Shown here piece after piece: positions 22,169-57,414 of a stretch of DNA of 64,000 nucleotides. The DNA lies in NCBI RefSeq assembly GCF_017939705.1, contig NZ_JAGKSQ010000007.1:1-64000 (forward strand). The letters are read 5' to 3'. Both the position numbers and the translations under genes were made by a program. This stretch comes from Halalkalibacter suaedae. GTDB lineage: Bacteria; Bacillota; Bacilli; Bacillales; Bacillaceae_D. The notes below the pieces were generated by a model, which did no database searches, was not told where the DNA came from, and worked only from the letters and a program-made list of their open reading frames with translations. The number at the start of each line of letters is the position of its first letter. Positions within the stretch are counted from its first letter, which is position 1.

Positions 22169-22409
22169 AGAGGCTCGGACGCAACAAAAGTGTCTGACTG
22201 AAATTCGGAATAAAGCATTTATTTAGCGGATGAAATATACGTAGACTCCTGCGGGATGCAAAAGCAAGCCAAAGGTGAGACCCCACAGGCGAAGCCGAGG
22301 AGGCTCACCGGCTTCCCGCGGAAAGCGAAGTATATTTCAGGAGCGGCGTCCGCAAGCTATCTATCTTGGTTCGGGTTTTAAGTCAGTTCAGACTTTTGTC
22401 CCGGCCTCT
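22169..22409 (+). repeat. dispersed hairpin repeat, copy R1
   Basis: This 241-bp element has inverted ends AGAGGCTCGGAC and GTCCCGGCCTCT. Inside are nested inverted repeats: TGAAATATAC (22231-22240) with GTATATTTCA (22330-22339), GCGGGA with TCCCGC, and GGTGAG with CTCACC. It lies between the convergent DUF554 and yyaC genes. The right end followed by TTTTTT can act as a terminator. It matches copies R3, R4 and R5 closely and R2 partly. Confidence 0.93.
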
Positions 22410-22415
22410 TTTTTG

Positions 22416-27249: not shown

Positions 27250-27256
27250 GAATAAC

Positions 27257-27380
27257 AGGCTGGGACATAACTAAAGTGTCTAACTGAAATACTGAACAAG
27301 GCAATACCTCAGGAGCGGTTTACTTCCGCCCACTATTATTGTTCGGATTTTCTTTTAGTAAATCACTTTTGTCCTAGCCT
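27257..27380 (+). repeat. dispersed hairpin repeat, internally deleted copy R2
   Basis: The ends AGGCTGGGAC and GTCCTAGCCT and the flanks AAGTGTCTAACTGAAAT and CAGGAGCGGTTTACTTCCG match R4 and R5. The central 110 bp or so with the GC-rich nested hairpin is absent. The remaining ends still pair, so the copy would still form a hairpin. It lies between rpsR and yybS. Confidence 0.88.
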
Positions 27381-27499
27381 ATTTTATTTTTTGAATAAAC
27401 TCTCTGATTTCGAGCAATGCTTTAACTTTGAGGGCAATTGCGTTAAAATATAAAAGAATATCAAGAGTTGCATACACAACAAGAAAAAGAGGTGGATTT

Positions 27500-41930: not shown

Positions 41931-41939
41931 TATAAATGA

Positions 41940-42179
41940 AGAGGTTGGGACAAAAGTAATTTAACTAATAGAAAACCGAAAATGATAGTTGGCGGGAGTA
42001 AACCGCTCCTGAAATATACTTCGCTTTCCGCGGGAAGCCGGTGAGCCTCCTCGTGCTTCGCACTTGCGGGGTCTCACCTTTGGCTTTTTTGTCCCGCAGG
42101 AGTCTACGTATATTTCATCCGCTACATGATTGCTTTATTCGGTATTTCAGTTAGATACTTTAATTATGTCCCGGCCTCT
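41940..42179 (-). repeat. dispersed hairpin repeat, copy R3 (inverted)
   Basis: This 240-bp copy is in the opposite orientation to the others, with ends AGAGGTTGGGAC and GTCCCGGCCTCT and the same nested arms (CTGAAATATACTTCG, TCCGCGGGAAGCC, GCAGGAGTCTACG). It fills most of the 400-bp walJ-htrA gap. The rest (42180-42330) holds only a TATAAT at 42290-42295 and the htrA binding site. Confidence 0.93.
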
Positions 42180-42330
42180 TTTTATGCATTACTTTTGACG
42201 TTTACGCGTCAACATTGTTGGGAATTATAAAGAAAAATCAAAAATATCGTAAATTGTGTGAAAGCACTAGTAAATGACTTTTTTCCGATTATAATATAAC
42301 CATAATCATACTAAAGGAAGGTGTAGCAGA

Positions 42331-52363: not shown

Positions 52364-52460
52364 TATGCTTCAAGCGGTTGGTTCAACTGTCAAAGGATAG
52401 AAGGAAAGCCTAAAAGAAATAACTAATAAAAAACCTTATTTAGTTAAATGAAGAACAAAA

Positions 52461-52699
52461 AGAGGCTGGGACATAACTAAAGTGTTTAACTGAAATGCCG
52501 AACAAAGCAGTCATGTAGCGGATGAAATATACGTAGACTCCTGCGGGATGAAAAAGCCAAGTGTGAGACCCCACAGGCGTAGCCGAGGAGGCTCACCGGC
52601 TTCCCGCGGAAAGCGAAGTATATTTCAGGAGCGGCTTACATCCGTCAACTATCATTGTTCGCATTTTGTATTAGCTAAATCACTTTTGTCCGAGCCTCT
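52461..52699 (+). repeat. dispersed hairpin repeat, copy R4
   Basis: This 239-bp copy has ends AGAGGCTGGGAC and GTCCGAGCCTCT (one mismatch). It is nearly identical to R5 over the central GC-rich hairpin. It lies between the convergent esterase and VOC genes and fills most of that gap. Confidence 0.94.
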
Positions 52700-52709
52700 T
52701 TTTGCCTGC

Positions 52710-53379: not shown

Positions 53380-54507
53380 ATGAACAATGTTTATCAAGAT
53401 GGCAAGGGGTTTGCAAAGTCCTACATACTGTCTTACACAGAAATGACTGATCAGGAGTCGAGCTTTCCTGAAGAATCCTTTAAGGAACTTGGAGAAAAGG
53501 GCTTTTTAAAGTTACTCGTACCTGAAGAATATGGTGGATATGGCAAAGGCCTTGTCGAGCATGCGGAGGCTTGTCTAGCCTTTGCAGAGACGTGTGCGAC
53601 GACTGCTCTTTGTTACATGATGCATAATGTTGCCTTGATGTGTGTCCTAACGCATGGAAGTGCTGAGCTTAAGAAAAGGATTTTTGAAGATGTCGTAGAG
53701 AACGGCAAATTTCTAGCATTGGGCTACAGTGAAATTGGAACAGGAACACATTTCTACAAGCCAGAAATCACAGCAGAGGTTAAAGGTGAATACACAACGT
53801 TTAATGGCACAAAGAGTATGGTTACTTCTGCTTCGTATGCTTCTTATTATCTCGTTCTTGCACCATCTGTAGAAGAAGGGAAAATTAACAACTGGGTCAT
53901 CCCTCTTGAGGAAGATGGCTTAACATTTGCAAGCTCAGATTGGCAAGGTCTTGGAATGAGGGGGAATTCGTCATGTCCAATGCACATTAATGATGTGACT
54001 TTGCACTCTTCTAACCGTATTGGAGAAGAAGGATCTGGTGAAGAGCAAGTATTCAACGTGGTAGCCCCGTTCTTCATTCTAGGATTAGGTGCCATCTATA
54101 GTGGTATTGCTGTGCATCTGTTTGACATTGTAAGCCATCATGCTGTCGACCGAAAATATCCTGATGGACGTTCACTTTCTAATATTGAGACTGTACAAGT
54201 TCATATCGGCCAAATTTATAAGCAGGCATCTGTAGCCAAAGCAATGACCTTAGATGCTGCACAAGCAGGGGCGAACGGTGATGCCGATGCACTTGCAAAG
54301 ATATTGGCGGCCAGAATCAACGCATCTGAAGCTGCAATCGATTGTGGAACGCTTGCTATGAGAGTTGGAGGAGGAAAAGCCTACAATAAGGCATTACCGA
54401 TTGAGAGACTTTTAAGGGATGCATATGCTGGGCAAGTTATGGCTCCAAGCACCGACGTTTTGAATGTTTGGCTTGGGAAAGCATTAACAGGTCAGATGAT
54501 TCCATAA
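53380..54507 (+). CDS. acyl-CoA dehydrogenase-fold flavoprotein lacking the usual catalytic glutamate
   Basis: This 375-residue protein has N-terminal helical, middle beta and C-terminal helical domains of the acyl-CoA dehydrogenase fold (LLVPEEYGGYGKGLVEHAEA, GYSEIGTGTHF, ERLLRDAYAG). Where dehydrogenases carry the catalytic Glu in a YEGT-like motif, this protein reads VMAPSTD. That pattern fits flavin monooxygenases or oxidases built on the same fold. ATG at 53380 has AAGGAGG upstream. First gene of a four-gene unit with PhnD-like, MetE-like and OsmC-like proteins. Substrate unknown. Confidence 0.82.
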   Translation: MNNVYQDGKGFAKSYILSYTEMTDQESSFPEESFKELGEKGFLKLLVPEEYGGYGKGLVEHAEACLAFAETCATTALCYMMHNVALMCVLTHGSAELKKRIFEDVVENGKFLALGYSEIGTGTHFYKPEITAEVKGEYTTFNGTKSMVTSASYASYYLVLAPSVEEGKINNWVIPLEEDGLTFASSDWQGLGMRGNSSCPMHINDVTLHSSNRIGEEGSGEEQVFNVVAPFFILGLGAIYSGIAVHLFDIVSHHAVDRKYPDGRSLSNIETVQVHIGQIYKQASVAKAMTLDAAQAGANGDADALAKILAARINASEAAIDCGTLAMRVGGGKAYNKALPIERLLRDAYAGQVMAPSTDVLNVWLGKALTGQMIP

Positions 54508-54530
54508 AAAAACAATGAGGAGTGAGTTAA

Positions 54531-55352
54531 TTGAATAACGATACTATAAAAGTTGGAGCCGTCATTTATGATCCGAGGGTTACAGTGATCTGGGGGATCA
54601 TAGCCGATTTTTTCAAGGAGGAAGGGCTTGAAATAGAATGTGTCTTCTATAAGGATTACGAAGTACAGGTAGACGGATTACTGAACAAGGAAATAGACAT
54701 TGCCTGGAATTCTCCTCTAGCATGGTTGGACACATACTTGCGAACCGATGGGAAATGCCAGATGGGTTCGATGAGAGATACCGATAGAGACAGAAAGACT
54801 TGTATCATTGTAAGAAAAGATAGTGGCATCACAAATGCTGCTGAGTTAAAGGACAAGACGATTGGCTTTGGTGCGATCGACTCACCTCAAGCAAGACTAA
54901 TCCCGATCAATCATTTACATAAAAAATATGGGCTTGAGTATGATGAAGATTACACAGAGACATTATTTAATATTGGCGTGGGTCTTCATGGCGACCACGT
55001 CGGAGGAGAGTTAGATGCTCTCAAAGCATTACTTGCAGGTACTGTAGACGCATCTGTCACACTGGATTTGAACTGGGAAGCTTGGAAGAAGGATGGCACG
55101 ATTGATGAGAATCAATTGCTATGTATTGATACGACAGATGTATTTGATCATTGCATTTTCGTGGCACATCCTGATTTTTCAACGGAAAGGTTTATCGAGT
55201 GGGAGAAAGTGCTTAATAAAATGGATTACAACAATGAAGACCATCAGAAGATGATGGATATGGAAGGCCTAAAGGAATGGGTTGAAGGCAGAACGACAGG
55301 GTTTGAGCAATTGCGTGAAGCAAATGATTATCTGAAGTTCCTAAATAAGTAA
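54531..55352 (+). CDS. PhnD/NrtA-like substrate-binding protein without signal peptide
   Basis: This 273-residue protein has the type-II periplasmic binding fold seen in phosphonate and sulfonate binding proteins (IDIAWNSPLAWLDTY, ELKDKTIGFGAIDSPQARLIP, ALLAGTVDASVTLDLNWEAW). It starts directly with NNDTIKVGAVIYDP, with no signal peptide, lipobox or hydrophobic N-terminus. No ABC permease or ATPase gene is near. It is therefore probably cytoplasmic, as a ligand carrier, sensor or enzyme. The start is TTG with GAGGAG upstream, 23 bp after the flavoprotein gene. Confidence 0.82.
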   Translation: MNNDTIKVGAVIYDPRVTVIWGIIADFFKEEGLEIECVFYKDYEVQVDGLLNKEIDIAWNSPLAWLDTYLRTDGKCQMGSMRDTDRDRKTCIIVRKDSGITNAAELKDKTIGFGAIDSPQARLIPINHLHKKYGLEYDEDYTETLFNIGVGLHGDHVGGELDALKALLAGTVDASVTLDLNWEAWKKDGTIDENQLLCIDTTDVFDHCIFVAHPDFSTERFIEWEKVLNKMDYNNEDHQKMMDMEGLKEWVEGRTTGFEQLREANDYLKFLNK

Positions 55353-55476
55353 TTTCTAAAGAGTTGAATGAACTGTTTCTATGAAACTATTTAATTTGGA
55401 AGCAATGAAAAAGAGAAGCGTGGGTGAGCCGTTGCTTCTCTCTACCTATTTCTATCTACTTTAGGAGATGAGAAAA

Positions 55477-56658
55477 ATGAAACGACCATTACCGCTTTTT
55501 CCTACTTCTTTAATGGGAAGCATGCCTAGATCGAAAGAAGTACTAGGTGCACTACGAAAGATGAGAAGAGGAACGATGGACCGAAATGAATTTAACAGGC
55601 TGATTGAGACGGAAACTGAAAAGGTGGTAAAGCTACAGGAGGATCTTGGGATCGATATTATCACAAGTGGAGAAATTGGACGAGATAACTATGTCTCCTT
55701 TGTATCTGATAAAATTGGTGGCGTTGAGATGATGAGCATGAGTGAAATGCTCGATTATATTGATGATAAACAAGCTTTTGAAACCATTTTGACAATGCTT
55801 GATGTTCCCGCAATCAGTATTAAAAATGCCATCTGTGTCGGTAAGCTGCAATACAAAGGTGATATTGTCGCAGATGAGCTTAGGATGATGAAGAAATTCA
55901 CTGATAAACCCGTCAAGGTTACATTACCAGGTCCCTATCTCCTTACTAGATCAATGTGGCTTCCTAATCTCTCTGGTACGTTTTACGAAAGCAAGGAGGA
56001 ACTCGGGCAAGATGTTATAGAGATTATGAAGCGAGAGATAGATAATCTAATCGACATCGGGGTTGACGTTATTCAGTTTGATGAACCCGTATTGACCGAG
56101 GTTGTTTTCACAGATGGAAAGCCAAGATCGTTTATGTGTGCTGCTCTTTCGGAAAGAAAGGATCCTAAGGAGGAGCTAGAATTCGCTAGTTCCTTAATTA
56201 GACAGATTATGGAGTATATTGATCGAACAAAGACCATTACGTCTCTTCATATCTGTCGAGGAAACTGGAGCAAGAATGAGAGCATATTACTCACGGGGCC
56301 CTATACACCATTGCTTGAATTATTTGCGGAGGTGGATCCTGATCTATTAACACTTGAATTCTCAACACCAAGGGCAGGTGAGTTGAACTCCTTATTGTCT
56401 GATAGAAGAATTCGTGAAAATACTGCACTTGGTTTAGGTGTGATTAATCCACGTACAGATGAAATCGAGACAACTGATTCGATTGTTTTAAGAGTGGAGG
56501 AAGCGATGAACGATCTTCCAAAGGAAAAAATATGGCTTAATCCCGACTGCGGGTTTGCAACCTTCTCTAGTAGTCCAGTTAACATACTTGAAAACATCTC
56601 CGGTAAAATCCGTTCACTAACAGACGCAGCTACAATGCTAAGGAGTAAATATGAATAA
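55477..56658 (+). CDS. core-MetE-type zinc methyltransferase
   Basis: This 393-residue protein corresponds only to the catalytic C-terminal half of cobalamin-independent methionine synthase. Predicted zinc ligands are present: His and Cys in LHICRGNW (about 258 and 260), Glu in LEFST (about 293) and Cys in NPDCGF (about 358). The N-terminal half that helps bind methyltetrahydrofolate in full-length MetE is absent, as in folate-independent core methionine synthases and alkyl-thiol transferases. The ATG at 55477 has AGGAG nine bases upstream. Methyl donor and acceptor are unknown. Confidence 0.85.
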   Translation: MKRPLPLFPTSLMGSMPRSKEVLGALRKMRRGTMDRNEFNRLIETETEKVVKLQEDLGIDIITSGEIGRDNYVSFVSDKIGGVEMMSMSEMLDYIDDKQAFETILTMLDVPAISIKNAICVGKLQYKGDIVADELRMMKKFTDKPVKVTLPGPYLLTRSMWLPNLSGTFYESKEELGQDVIEIMKREIDNLIDIGVDVIQFDEPVLTEVVFTDGKPRSFMCAALSERKDPKEELEFASSLIRQIMEYIDRTKTITSLHICRGNWSKNESILLTGPYTPLLELFAEVDPDLLTLEFSTPRAGELNSLLSDRRIRENTALGLGVINPRTDEIETTDSIVLRVEEAMNDLPKEKIWLNPDCGFATFSSSPVNILENISGKIRSLTDAATMLRSKYE

Positions 56659-57139
56659 CGAACCAACAGATAAAGTAGTATTACATGAGTCCAAAGTTTT
56701 TGATATGAGCTTCAGGGGAACGTCTAACGATCTCTCGTCTGTGAAGGTGTATACAAATAGAAGTAGCTTTCAGATTGAAAAACAAGTCAGTTTTGACTCC
56801 GAATATGAACAAATCAGCAGTCTAGAATACTTTGCTGGATCTGTTTTAAGTAGCATTCTATTGACGCTTTTAGAGCAGTCTAAAAAGAAAGGCTCTATTA
56901 TTGAAGAAATTGAAGGAGTCTTGAATCTATCACTGGATAATCCTTTGTCGATGTTGGGGGTAAAAGGATATGACGTGGAACCTTGTATTAATAAAACAAC
57001 GGTAACCGTTTATTTGTATGCTGAGCTTGAGGAAAATGAGCTTTCTGAATTTTGCACTATGGCACTCAATCATTCACCAGTGTACAATACTCTAAAGAGG
57101 TCGATGGAGCTTGAAGTGAACTTTAGGAGACTTGTGTGA
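56651..57139 (+). CDS. OsmC-fold protein lacking both peroxidatic cysteines
   Basis: This 162-residue protein resembles the OsmC/Ohr fold in its helix SSLEYFAGSVLSSILLTLLEQSKKKG, the beta-strand SIIEEIEGVLNLSL and a late ALNHSPVYNTL segment. OsmC proteins use two cysteines; here the first is in a Ser-rich helix without Cys and the second (normally CPV) reads SPV. It is thus unlikely to be a thiol peroxidase and may bind a ligand or partner. It overlaps the MetE-like gene by 8 bp, so translation is coupled. Confidence 0.65.
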   Translation: MNNEPTDKVVLHESKVFDMSFRGTSNDLSSVKVYTNRSSFQIEKQVSFDSEYEQISSLEYFAGSVLSSILLTLLEQSKKKGSIIEEIEGVLNLSLDNPLSMLGVKGYDVEPCINKTTVTVYLYAELEENELSEFCTMALNHSPVYNTLKRSMELEVNFRRLV

Positions 57140-57173
57140 AGAGCTAGATTAATAAGGTGTTTAATTAATATAA

Positions 57174-57412
57174 AGAGGCTGGGACGTAACTAAAGTGTCT
57201 AATTGAAATACTTAACAAAGCAGTCATGTAGCGGATGAAATATACGTAGACTCCTGCGGGATGAAAAAGCCAAGTGTGAGACCCCACAGGCGTAGCCGAG
57301 GAGGCTCACCGGCTTCCCGCGGAAAGCGAAGTATATTTCAGGAGCGGCTTATGTCCGCCAACTATCTTTGTTCGTATTTTCTATTAGTTAAATCACTTTT
57401 GTCCCAGCCTCT
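57174..57412 (+). repeat. dispersed hairpin repeat, copy R5
   Basis: This 239-bp copy has perfectly complementary ends AGAGGCTGGGAC and GTCCCAGCCTCT and the same nested internal arms. It lies between the convergent OsmC-like and clostripain-like genes, 2 bp from the latter's stop codon. It can serve as a bidirectional terminator. Confidence 0.95.
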
Positions 57413-57414
57413 TA

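What the first reader, a model, noticed from the sequence alone, without database searches (positions are those of the whole stretch)
53380..57139. Four-gene unit combining a Glu-less ACAD-fold flavoprotein, a cytosolic PhnD-like protein, a core-MetE and a Cys-less OsmC protein
The genes are tightly spaced (23-bp and about 124-bp gaps, then an 8-bp overlap) on one strand. Three of four show family-atypical features: the flavoprotein lacks the YEGT-like catalytic glutamate, the binding protein lacks a signal peptide and any ABC partner, and the OsmC-like protein lacks both cysteines. The MetE-like enzyme keeps all four expected zinc ligands but has only the catalytic half. A plausible reading is oxidative release of a methyl or sulfur group from a small organosulfur or methylated compound, carried by the binding protein and passed to homocysteine or another thiol. 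I know of no described pathway with this set.
Basis: partly seen in the sequence, partly recalled or inferred. Interest (0 to 1): 0.8.

Follow-up and report, generated by a model that had tools for sequence, protein, structure and literature searches.

The report
Selenium-linked demethylation gene cassette
A four-gene bacterial cassette, conserved from Bacillus relatives to distant phyla, travels with the genes for using selenium and probably frees selenium from methylated compounds without vitamin B12, which would be a new route for bacteria to obtain this trace element.

Summary
In detail: four tandem genes encode an acyl-CoA-dehydrogenase-fold flavoprotein without the catalytic Glu, a cytosolic PhnD-like protein, a core MetE-like enzyme and an OsmC-fold protein without active-site cysteines. 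The set is not local. A GTDB scan found 498 relatives of the PhnD-like gene; of the best 80 loci, 48 carry all four genes and 17 carry the first two plus a TusA-like/diiron fusion instead. The four gene trees agree (Mantel r 0.87-0.955, 51 loci). The decisive lead is selenium: 46 of 49 carrier genomes searched have selD and two of the other three have selA, against 33.7% selD in a published survey. In Streptomyces (selD in 24 of 150) the 4 intact orthologues are all in selD genomes; a broken unit lies in a selD-less one. The MetE-like family keeps every zinc and homocysteine residue of MetE. Best reading: a corrinoid-free methyl-selenium salvage unit that moves methyl to homocysteine and supplies selenium to SelD, analogous to corrinoid SdmABC and type I mlp clusters. 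The selenium link is strong (about 0.85); substrate and chemistry are inferred (about 0.5).

The parts
53380..54507 (+). Acyl-CoA-dehydrogenase-fold flavoprotein (375 aa) without the catalytic Glu; nearest NCBIfam model NF049984 (Rv1679/FadE16), 249 bits against a cut-off of 600
   Evidence: family invariants M81, M354, P356 (88 of 88) and H82 (87 of 88)
54531..55352 (+). Cytosolic PhnD/PtxB-fold protein (273 aa); invariant H207-C208 lies at the ligand-cap position of PhnD1/PtxB; nearest NCBIfam model NF049985 (Rv1680), 199 bits against a cut-off of 400
   Evidence: 86 of 86; pLDDT 95.0
55412..55441 (+). Stem-loop (GAGAAGC...GCTTCTC) in the gap between genes 2 and 3, present in 9 of 11 gaps of 65 bases or more that were examined; probably an attenuator or weak terminator between the two gene pairs
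   Evidence: no Rfam match
55468..56658 (+). Core MetE-like methyltransferase (396 aa): MetE catalytic half only, all zinc ligands (H261, C263, E297, C361) and homocysteine contacts (S18, E69, D205) kept, plus family-invariant C123 and C224 that E. coli MetE and the genome's own MetE lack
56651..57139 (+). OsmC-fold protein (162 aa) without the peroxidatic cysteines; family invariants R22 and E88
   Evidence: (56 of 56)

Best explanation
The four genes form a mobile accessory unit for selenium acquisition or salvage. A small methylated selenium compound (for example methylselenol, dimethyl selenide or methylseleninate, taken up or formed inside the cell) is held in the cytosol by the PhnD-fold protein, with the invariant Cys208 in the ligand cleft. 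The base-less acyl-CoA-dehydrogenase-fold flavoprotein carries out the redox step that makes the methyl-selenium bond transferable. The MetE-like zinc enzyme moves the methyl group to homocysteine, giving methionine and leaving reduced selenium. The OsmC-fold protein binds or relays that product to selenophosphate synthetase (SelD). In the second version of the unit a TusA-like domain fused to a diiron oxygenase replaces MetE and OsmC, so the methyl group would be removed oxidatively. Shown here: gene set, conservation, co-inheritance, association with selD, intact homocysteine/zinc site, predicted fold of two proteins. Inferred: the substrate, the order of steps, the roles of the flavoprotein and the OsmC-like protein, the Cys208 chemistry.
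For: Carriers: selD over cut-off in 46 of 49 genomes, selA in 41 of 49; the three without selD are metagenome-assembled genomes, two of which have selA, so 48 of 49 show one of the two. Seven of the eight carriers without selA (Paenibacillus/Cohnella) have selD and all 7 have mnmH, so the unit follows selD, not selenocysteine as such. Background 33.7% selD (PMC5029168, passages). Controls: Bacillales selD 167 of 299, carriers 5 of 5; own family 19 of 41, carriers 3 of 3; Streptomyces 24 of 150, intact orthologues 4 of 4, one of them the query's own genome, and a broken unit in a selD-less genome (L124); Actinomycetes 111 of 394, close orthologues 5 of 5, diverged Rv1680-type relatives 5 of 10. 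Linkage: selD about 12-14 kb from the gene in four Streptomyces genomes; Aerococcus L081 carries the unit among grdX, GrdE/GrdG-like, grdB(UGA), selD, yedF, selB and selA. Methyl transfer: all MetE zinc and homocysteine residues invariant. Precedent: corrinoid SdmABC for dimethyl selenide (PMC11097638, passages) and type I mlp clusters, 87% of species with selenocysteine genes (PMC10418091).
Against: In the window's own genome the unit is not beside selD/selA (contig 28 against contig 29), and in four of the eight further actinobacterial orthologues it is far from selD or on another contig (158 kb in G412, over 600 kb in G562, megabases in G786, another contig in G367). The unit is rare: 5 of 299 Bacillales against 167 with selD, so it is optional. 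The random-sample tests without search centres (and without one carrier known beforehand) are modest one by one (p 0.095, 0.0033, 0.021; combined 5.5e-4; 0.012 instead of 0.0033 if the broken copy counts as a carrier), and the 46 of 49 comparison is not corrected for shared ancestry. The flavoprotein/PhnD-like pair occurs as the Rv1680 type in genomes without selD, so the pair itself is not bound to selenium. One archaeal MAG carrier (L092) has neither selD nor selA. Only 42 of the 80 fetched loci were checked for selD. Nothing here identifies the substrate; the role of the flavoprotein is a guess. No expression or mutant data.
Confidence: 0.5

Rival explanations
1. Selenium delivery or detoxification without demethylation: the PhnD-fold protein binds an inorganic or other organic selenium species (selenite, selenocyanate, seleninate), the flavoprotein reduces it, and the MetE-like and OsmC-like proteins handle a thiol-bound intermediate on the way to SelD.
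For: Association with selD; fold relatives bind phosphite, methylphosphonate, arsenate and arsenite; a PhnCDE-type ABC transporter lies between selB and selD in the window's own genome.
Against: Does not explain why the MetE homocysteine and zinc sites are kept in 55 of 55 proteins; the PtxB STS oxyanion motif has become S118-P119-Q120.
Confidence: 0.25
2. Methyl-sulfur metabolism, with the selenium association arising only from shared habitats or joint horizontal transfer.
For: Sulfur enzymes are among the nearest named relatives (3-sulfinopropanoyl-CoA desulfinase and SfnB models); TusA and OsmC folds occur in sulfur systems (recalled); Rv1680-type relatives occur without selD.
Against: selD is present in 46 of 49 carriers, which come from eight bacterial phyla and one archaeon by record title, and in all intact orthologues of two actinobacterial samples, while the Rv1680-type relatives of the second sample are 5 of 10; broken unit in a selD-less Streptomyces.
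Confidence: 0.15
3. An ordinary extra methionine synthase operon (a further Mes-type family) with unrelated passengers.
For: MetE residues fully kept.
Against: The genome has a full-length MetE (L001, 502 bits); the four trees are congruent and a version without MetE exists.
Confidence: 0.07

Closest known systems
SdmABC dimethyl-selenide demethylation system of Methanococcus (PMC11097638, passages, citing Niess and Klein 2004)
   Same: Linked to mobilising selenium from a methylated compound by methyl transfer; proposed role the same
   Different: Uses a corrinoid protein and coenzyme M methyltransferase; no flavoprotein, PhnD-fold or OsmC protein is named there
Type I mlp gene clusters (PMC10418091, sections and passages)
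   Same: Widespread unit of methyltransferases, 87% of species with selenocysteine genes, proposed methyl-selenide salvage into methionine
   Different: Corrinoid protein and reductive activase, anaerobes only; ours has neither gene and also occurs in Streptomyces and Bacillales
Rv1679 (FadE16)-Rv1680 pair of mycobacteria (NCBIfam NF049984, NF049985)
   Same: Same two-gene pair, adjacent, same order in the M. vanbaalenii and R. opacus plasmids; H207-C208 kept
   Different: The window proteins are below both cut-offs (249 of 600, 199 of 400 bits); partners there are a radical SAM protein or a DoxX-like protein; not tied to selD (5 of 10)
Core methionine synthases MesA-MesD (PMC7857596, abstract and two sections)
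   Same: MetE catalytic half alone, zinc and homocysteine residues
   Different: 24-27% identity to MetE; profile scores for MesD 3rpd (120 bits) within the range of MetE structures (114-140); different partners
PhnD/PtxB phosphite and phosphonate binding proteins
   Same: Fold
   Different: No signal peptide, no ABC partner beside it, STS motif changed, cap Tyr replaced by Cys208

Membership tests
Core methionine synthase (MetE catalytic family) | Zinc ligands H641, C643, E665, C726 (E. coli numbering) | tested here: met
   55 of 55
Core methionine synthase (MetE catalytic family) | Homocysteine contacts S433, E484, D599 | tested here: met
   55 of 55
Core methionine synthase (MetE catalytic family) | Makes methionine in the cell | not testable with these tools
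   needs complementation
MesA/MesB/MesC/MesD | Membership of one of the four published clades | tested here: inconclusive
   Glu at position 484 argues against MesA and MesC (Gln) and MesB (not conserved) by the text of PMC7857596; no tree with these families was made
Acyl-CoA dehydrogenase | Three-domain sequence profile | tested here: met
Acyl-CoA dehydrogenase | Catalytic Glu of the YEGT motif | tested here: not met
   MAPS instead; M354 and P356 invariant in 88 of 88
PhnD/PtxB ABC substrate-binding protein | Fold | tested here: met
PhnD/PtxB ABC substrate-binding protein | Signal peptide and ABC transporter genes beside it | tested here: not met
   by inspection; no predictor run
PhnD/PtxB ABC substrate-binding protein | STS-H oxyanion motif and tyrosine cap | tested here: not met
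   STS against S118-P119-Q120; cap Tyr against Cys208; a His is kept (H153)
Rv1680 family (NF049985) | Score over the curated cut-off of 400 bits | tested here: not met
   199 bits; the diverged actinobacterial relatives L125 and L025 do pass (472, 495 bits)
OsmC/Ohr peroxidase | Two catalytic cysteines | tested here: not met
   no Cys column at 90% in 56 proteins
Type I mlp gene cluster | Corrinoid protein, activase and at least Mlp2 and Mlp3 | tested here: not met
   none among the four genes or the three neighbours scanned
SelD-linked selenium gene | Found only or nearly only with selD | tested here: met
   46 of 49, controls; not a phylogeny-corrected test

The most novel reading that the evidence does not exclude
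A previously undescribed, cobalamin-free pathway by which bacteria (and possibly some archaea) obtain selenium from methylated selenium: a cytosolic binding-protein fold has become a cysteine-based selenium handler, a base-less acyl-CoA-dehydrogenase-fold enzyme works on an organoselenium compound, and a MetE-fold enzyme recovers the methyl group as methionine while the selenium goes to SelD; in a second version a TusA-like/diiron oxygenase does the demethylation with oxygen.
Probability: 0.42. Interest if true: 0.87.

Novelty: new variant of a known kind. Interest (0 to 1): 0.77.

Why it matters
How selenium reaches SelD, and how bacteria use methylated selenium, is poorly known outside methanogens and anaerobes with corrinoid clusters. 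This unit gives named genes, with conserved residues, in bacteria that can be grown, so the question becomes testable by simple deletions. It would also give a function to two orphan gene families and to a further kind of core MetE.

Tried and rejected
DszC/DszB-like desulfurisation (flavoprotein plus binding-protein fold): considered because of the two folds; dropped since the same genes occur in genera I know as anaerobes and the DszC model scores only 57 bits; the DszB comparison was from recall. Riboswitch control (for example SAM): no Rfam match in the 14 loci scanned except a T-box in L064, about 8 kb upstream on the other strand. A role tied to selenocysteine itself: rejected because 7 Paenibacillus/Cohnella carriers lack selA but have mnmH. 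SelB-binding of the intergenic hairpin: dropped because the hairpin also occurs in Cohnella L048, whose genome has no selA. A formate dehydrogenase link (L058-L061, L067, L068, L098, L104; three checked): read as part of selenium gene islands in some genomes, not general. Literature: searches (listings with titles and starts of abstracts) showed no paper linking this gene set to selenium; they cover open-licence PMC papers only.

What was not done: no tree with MesA-MesD; no signal-peptide predictor; no phylogeny-corrected association test.
Full report
What is there. Four genes on the + strand at 53380-57139: flavoprotein, PhnD-like protein, MetE-like enzyme, OsmC-like protein. Pfam and NCBIfam place each in a broad superfamily but none in a named functional family: the best NCBIfam models for the first two are the mycobacterial Rv1679 and Rv1680 families, at 249 of 600 and 199 of 400 bits.

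Conservation. Among 41 genomes of the family the PhnD-like gene is in 3 at 93% identity or more. Among 299 sampled Bacillales 5 have it, four at 85% or more and one (G161) at 37% with the second version of the unit. The six Bacillales copies of the full set (own, G015, G024, G067, G099, G236) keep the order and tight spacing but have different flanks, which points to horizontal transfer. One scan of GTDB genomes with an alignment of the PhnD-like protein found 498 relatives, of which the best 80 were fetched. By profile search 48 of these 80 carry all four genes, 17 carry the flavoprotein and PhnD-like genes plus a different protein, and 15 show fewer genes, several at contig ends. By record titles four-gene loci come from Bacillota, Synergistaceae, Alphaproteobacteria (Neomegalonema), Campylobacterales, Coriobacteria, Rubrobacteraceae, Armatimonadetes, Planctomycetota, Acidobacteria, Latescibacterota, Chloroflexi, Myxococcales, Verrucomicrobiales, Fimbriimonadaceae and one archaeal MAG (L092, Nitrososphaerota). 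In 51 four-gene loci (these 48 plus the window, G067 and G099) the order is flavoprotein-PhnD-MetE-OsmC in 35 and OsmC-flavoprotein-PhnD-MetE in 10, with six others; distance matrices of the four trees correlate at r 0.87 to 0.955, never reached in 999 permutations. The genes therefore move as a unit.

The second version. The extra protein of the 17 loci (and of L039) has a TusA-like N-terminal domain (Pfam 39 bits in L039; TusA structures among profile matches) and a C-terminal ferritin-like part with two D-E-x-R-H motifs and conserved glutamates, related to VlmB, ribonucleotide reductase small subunits and R2-like oxidases. No locus has both this fusion and the MetE-like gene. So either a methyltransferase plus OsmC or a TusA-like/diiron oxygenase works with the same two-gene core, which is what one expects if the common task is removal of a methyl or alkyl group.

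The selenium link. In the Aerococcus MAG L081 the unit is split around grdX, a GrdE/GrdG-like gene, grdB with an in-frame TGA, selD, yedF, selB and selA. This prompted a genome test. Of 49 carrier genomes (7 unnamed Bacillales, 42 through fetched loci; 50 handles asked, one not held) 46 have selD over the cut-off and 41 have selA. The three without selD are MAGs; two of them have selA. Seven of the eight without selA are Paenibacillus or Cohnella and all seven have the selenouridine enzyme MnmH. Published background: selD in 33.7% of bacteria (PMC5029168, passages). Within-group controls: Bacillales 167 of 299 selD+, carriers 5 of 5; own family 19 of 41, carriers 3 of 3. Streptomyces: 24 of 150 selD+, seven hits: four intact orthologues of 66% identity or more (one the query's own genome), all selD+; two diverged (41%), selD-; and one selD- genome, G438, in which the flavoprotein and PhnD-like genes are in pieces while the oxygenase gene is largely open. 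Actinomycetes: 111 of 394 selD+, fifteen hits: five orthologues of 64% or more, all selD+; ten diverged relatives of 36-39% (Rv1680 type by identity; the similar relative L125 passes NF049985), five selD+. In Streptomyces and Actinomycetes the nine intact orthologues all carry the TusA/diiron gene and none of the diverged ones does within the flanks held. Leaving out search centres and one carrier known beforehand, the three samples give p = 0.095, 0.0033 and 0.021, combined 5.5e-4. The 46 of 49 against 33.7% gives p about 1e-18, not corrected for phylogeny. Physical linkage: among 90 loci scanned (80 plus ten from other calls), selA, selB, selD or grd genes lie in the fetched flanks of L024, L042, L071, L072, L081, L098, L104 and L115; identities rest on the record for L024, for L104 and for the rest, of which the L042 gene is below its cut-off (411 of 780 bits) and the L115 gene is a fragment (200 of 268). 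selD is about 12-14 kb from the gene in the Streptomyces genomes G361, G362, G475 and G517 and 29 kb in G784, but 158 kb in G412, far away in G562 and G786 and on another contig in G367. A LysR regulator upstream in L039 has the selenium-metabolism LysR model as its best hit, below cut-off (170 of 250 bits); another in L049 does not.

What the proteins say. MetE-like: the residues of E. coli MetE that hold zinc and homocysteine, as listed in PMC7857596 (sections 6 and 11 read), are invariant in 55 of 55 family members, and two further cysteines, C123 and C224, are invariant and absent from E. coli MetE and the genome's own MetE. It therefore very probably binds homocysteine, and a methyl transfer to it is the natural reaction. 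PhnD-like: AlphaFold model with pLDDT 95.0; nearest solved folds are PhnD1 and PtxB, then arsenate and arsenite sensors and THI5. In profile alignments the invariant H207-C208 (86 of 86) falls on the ligand-contacting D205 and cap Y206 of Prochlorococcus PhnD1, and C208 on cap Y208 of Trichodesmium PtxB; the STS motif becomes S118-P119-Q120 (site residues from passages of PMC5700983). A soft cysteine at the ligand cap and the changed oxyanion motif fit a selenium or sulfur ligand better than phosphite. OsmC-like: fold supported, active-site cysteines gone, R22 and E88 invariant in 56 of 56. Flavoprotein: no base at the usual place, so not an ordinary acyl-CoA dehydrogenase; its reaction is unknown.

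A regulatory detail. Between genes 2 and 3 lies a stem-loop GAGAAGC-GUGG...CC-GCUUCUC (55412-55441) that recurs in 9 of 11 gaps examined (the window and ten other loci with gaps of 65 bases or more), without an Rfam match; units with shorter gaps were not examined. It may tune the second gene pair.

Explanation. I favour a selenium salvage unit that demethylates methylated selenium and hands selenium to SelD, with the methyl group saved as methionine. This is the corrinoid-free counterpart of SdmABC, linked to the mobilisation of dimethyl selenide in Methanococcus (PMC11097638, passages), and of the type I mlp clusters, for which methyl-selenide salvage was proposed and 87% of species carry selenocysteine genes (PMC10418091; discussion, first part of the results and passages read). 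Selenium link: about 0.85. Methyl transfer from a selenium compound: about 0.5. The step done by the flavoprotein and the relay role of the OsmC-like protein are guesses.

Novelty. Literature searches (listings) in the held library showed no paper that connects this gene set to selenium; a 2015 search for selenium genes from sel gene neighbourhoods lists YedE, YedF, LysR and DUF3343 as its candidates (PMC5322559, passages). I class it as a new variant of a known kind, methyl-selenium salvage, built from unrelated proteins.

Noticed in passing
window 52460-52700 and 57173-57413: Two copies (94% identical, same orientation) of a 241-bp element with 13-bp terminal inverted repeats (AAGAGGCTGGGAC) bracket the four-gene unit and a glyoxalase gene; two further near-full copies lie in the window (41939-42180, 22169-22410) and pieces at 27254-27383. 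Looks like a MITE; could have helped move the unit, but it is common here.
   Followed up: partly
L143 (G000 contig 29, 92000-108000), 1065-9420: In the window's own genome a PhnCDE-type ABC transporter (PhnE and PhnC models over cut-off, TIGR01098 for the lipoprotein) lies between selB and selD/selA; other family members (G011, G023, G025) also have a PhnD-type gene within 5 kb of selD. Candidate selenium-compound importer.
   Followed up: partly
L039 7276-8550 and 17 other loci: A TusA-like domain fused to a diiron-oxygenase-like domain with two D-E-x-R-H motifs; the Pfam scan of L039 and NCBIfam scan of L109 gave only partial matches.
   Followed up: partly
L024 1-10847 (Miltoncostaea oceani plasmid): The two-gene core lies near selD, radical SAM genes and a DUF2064/glycosyltransferase pair of the kind I recall from arsenosugar or selenium-associated gene sets.
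   Followed up: no
L062 7550-9972; L073 7294-9925; L075 7313-9925: Tandem duplication of the flavoprotein gene in Gemella and Aedoeadaptatus units; one copy could be a subunit or specialised paralogue.
   Followed up: no
L124 (G438, Streptomyces): Broken copy of the core in a genome without selD, with the oxygenase gene still largely open.
   Followed up: partly
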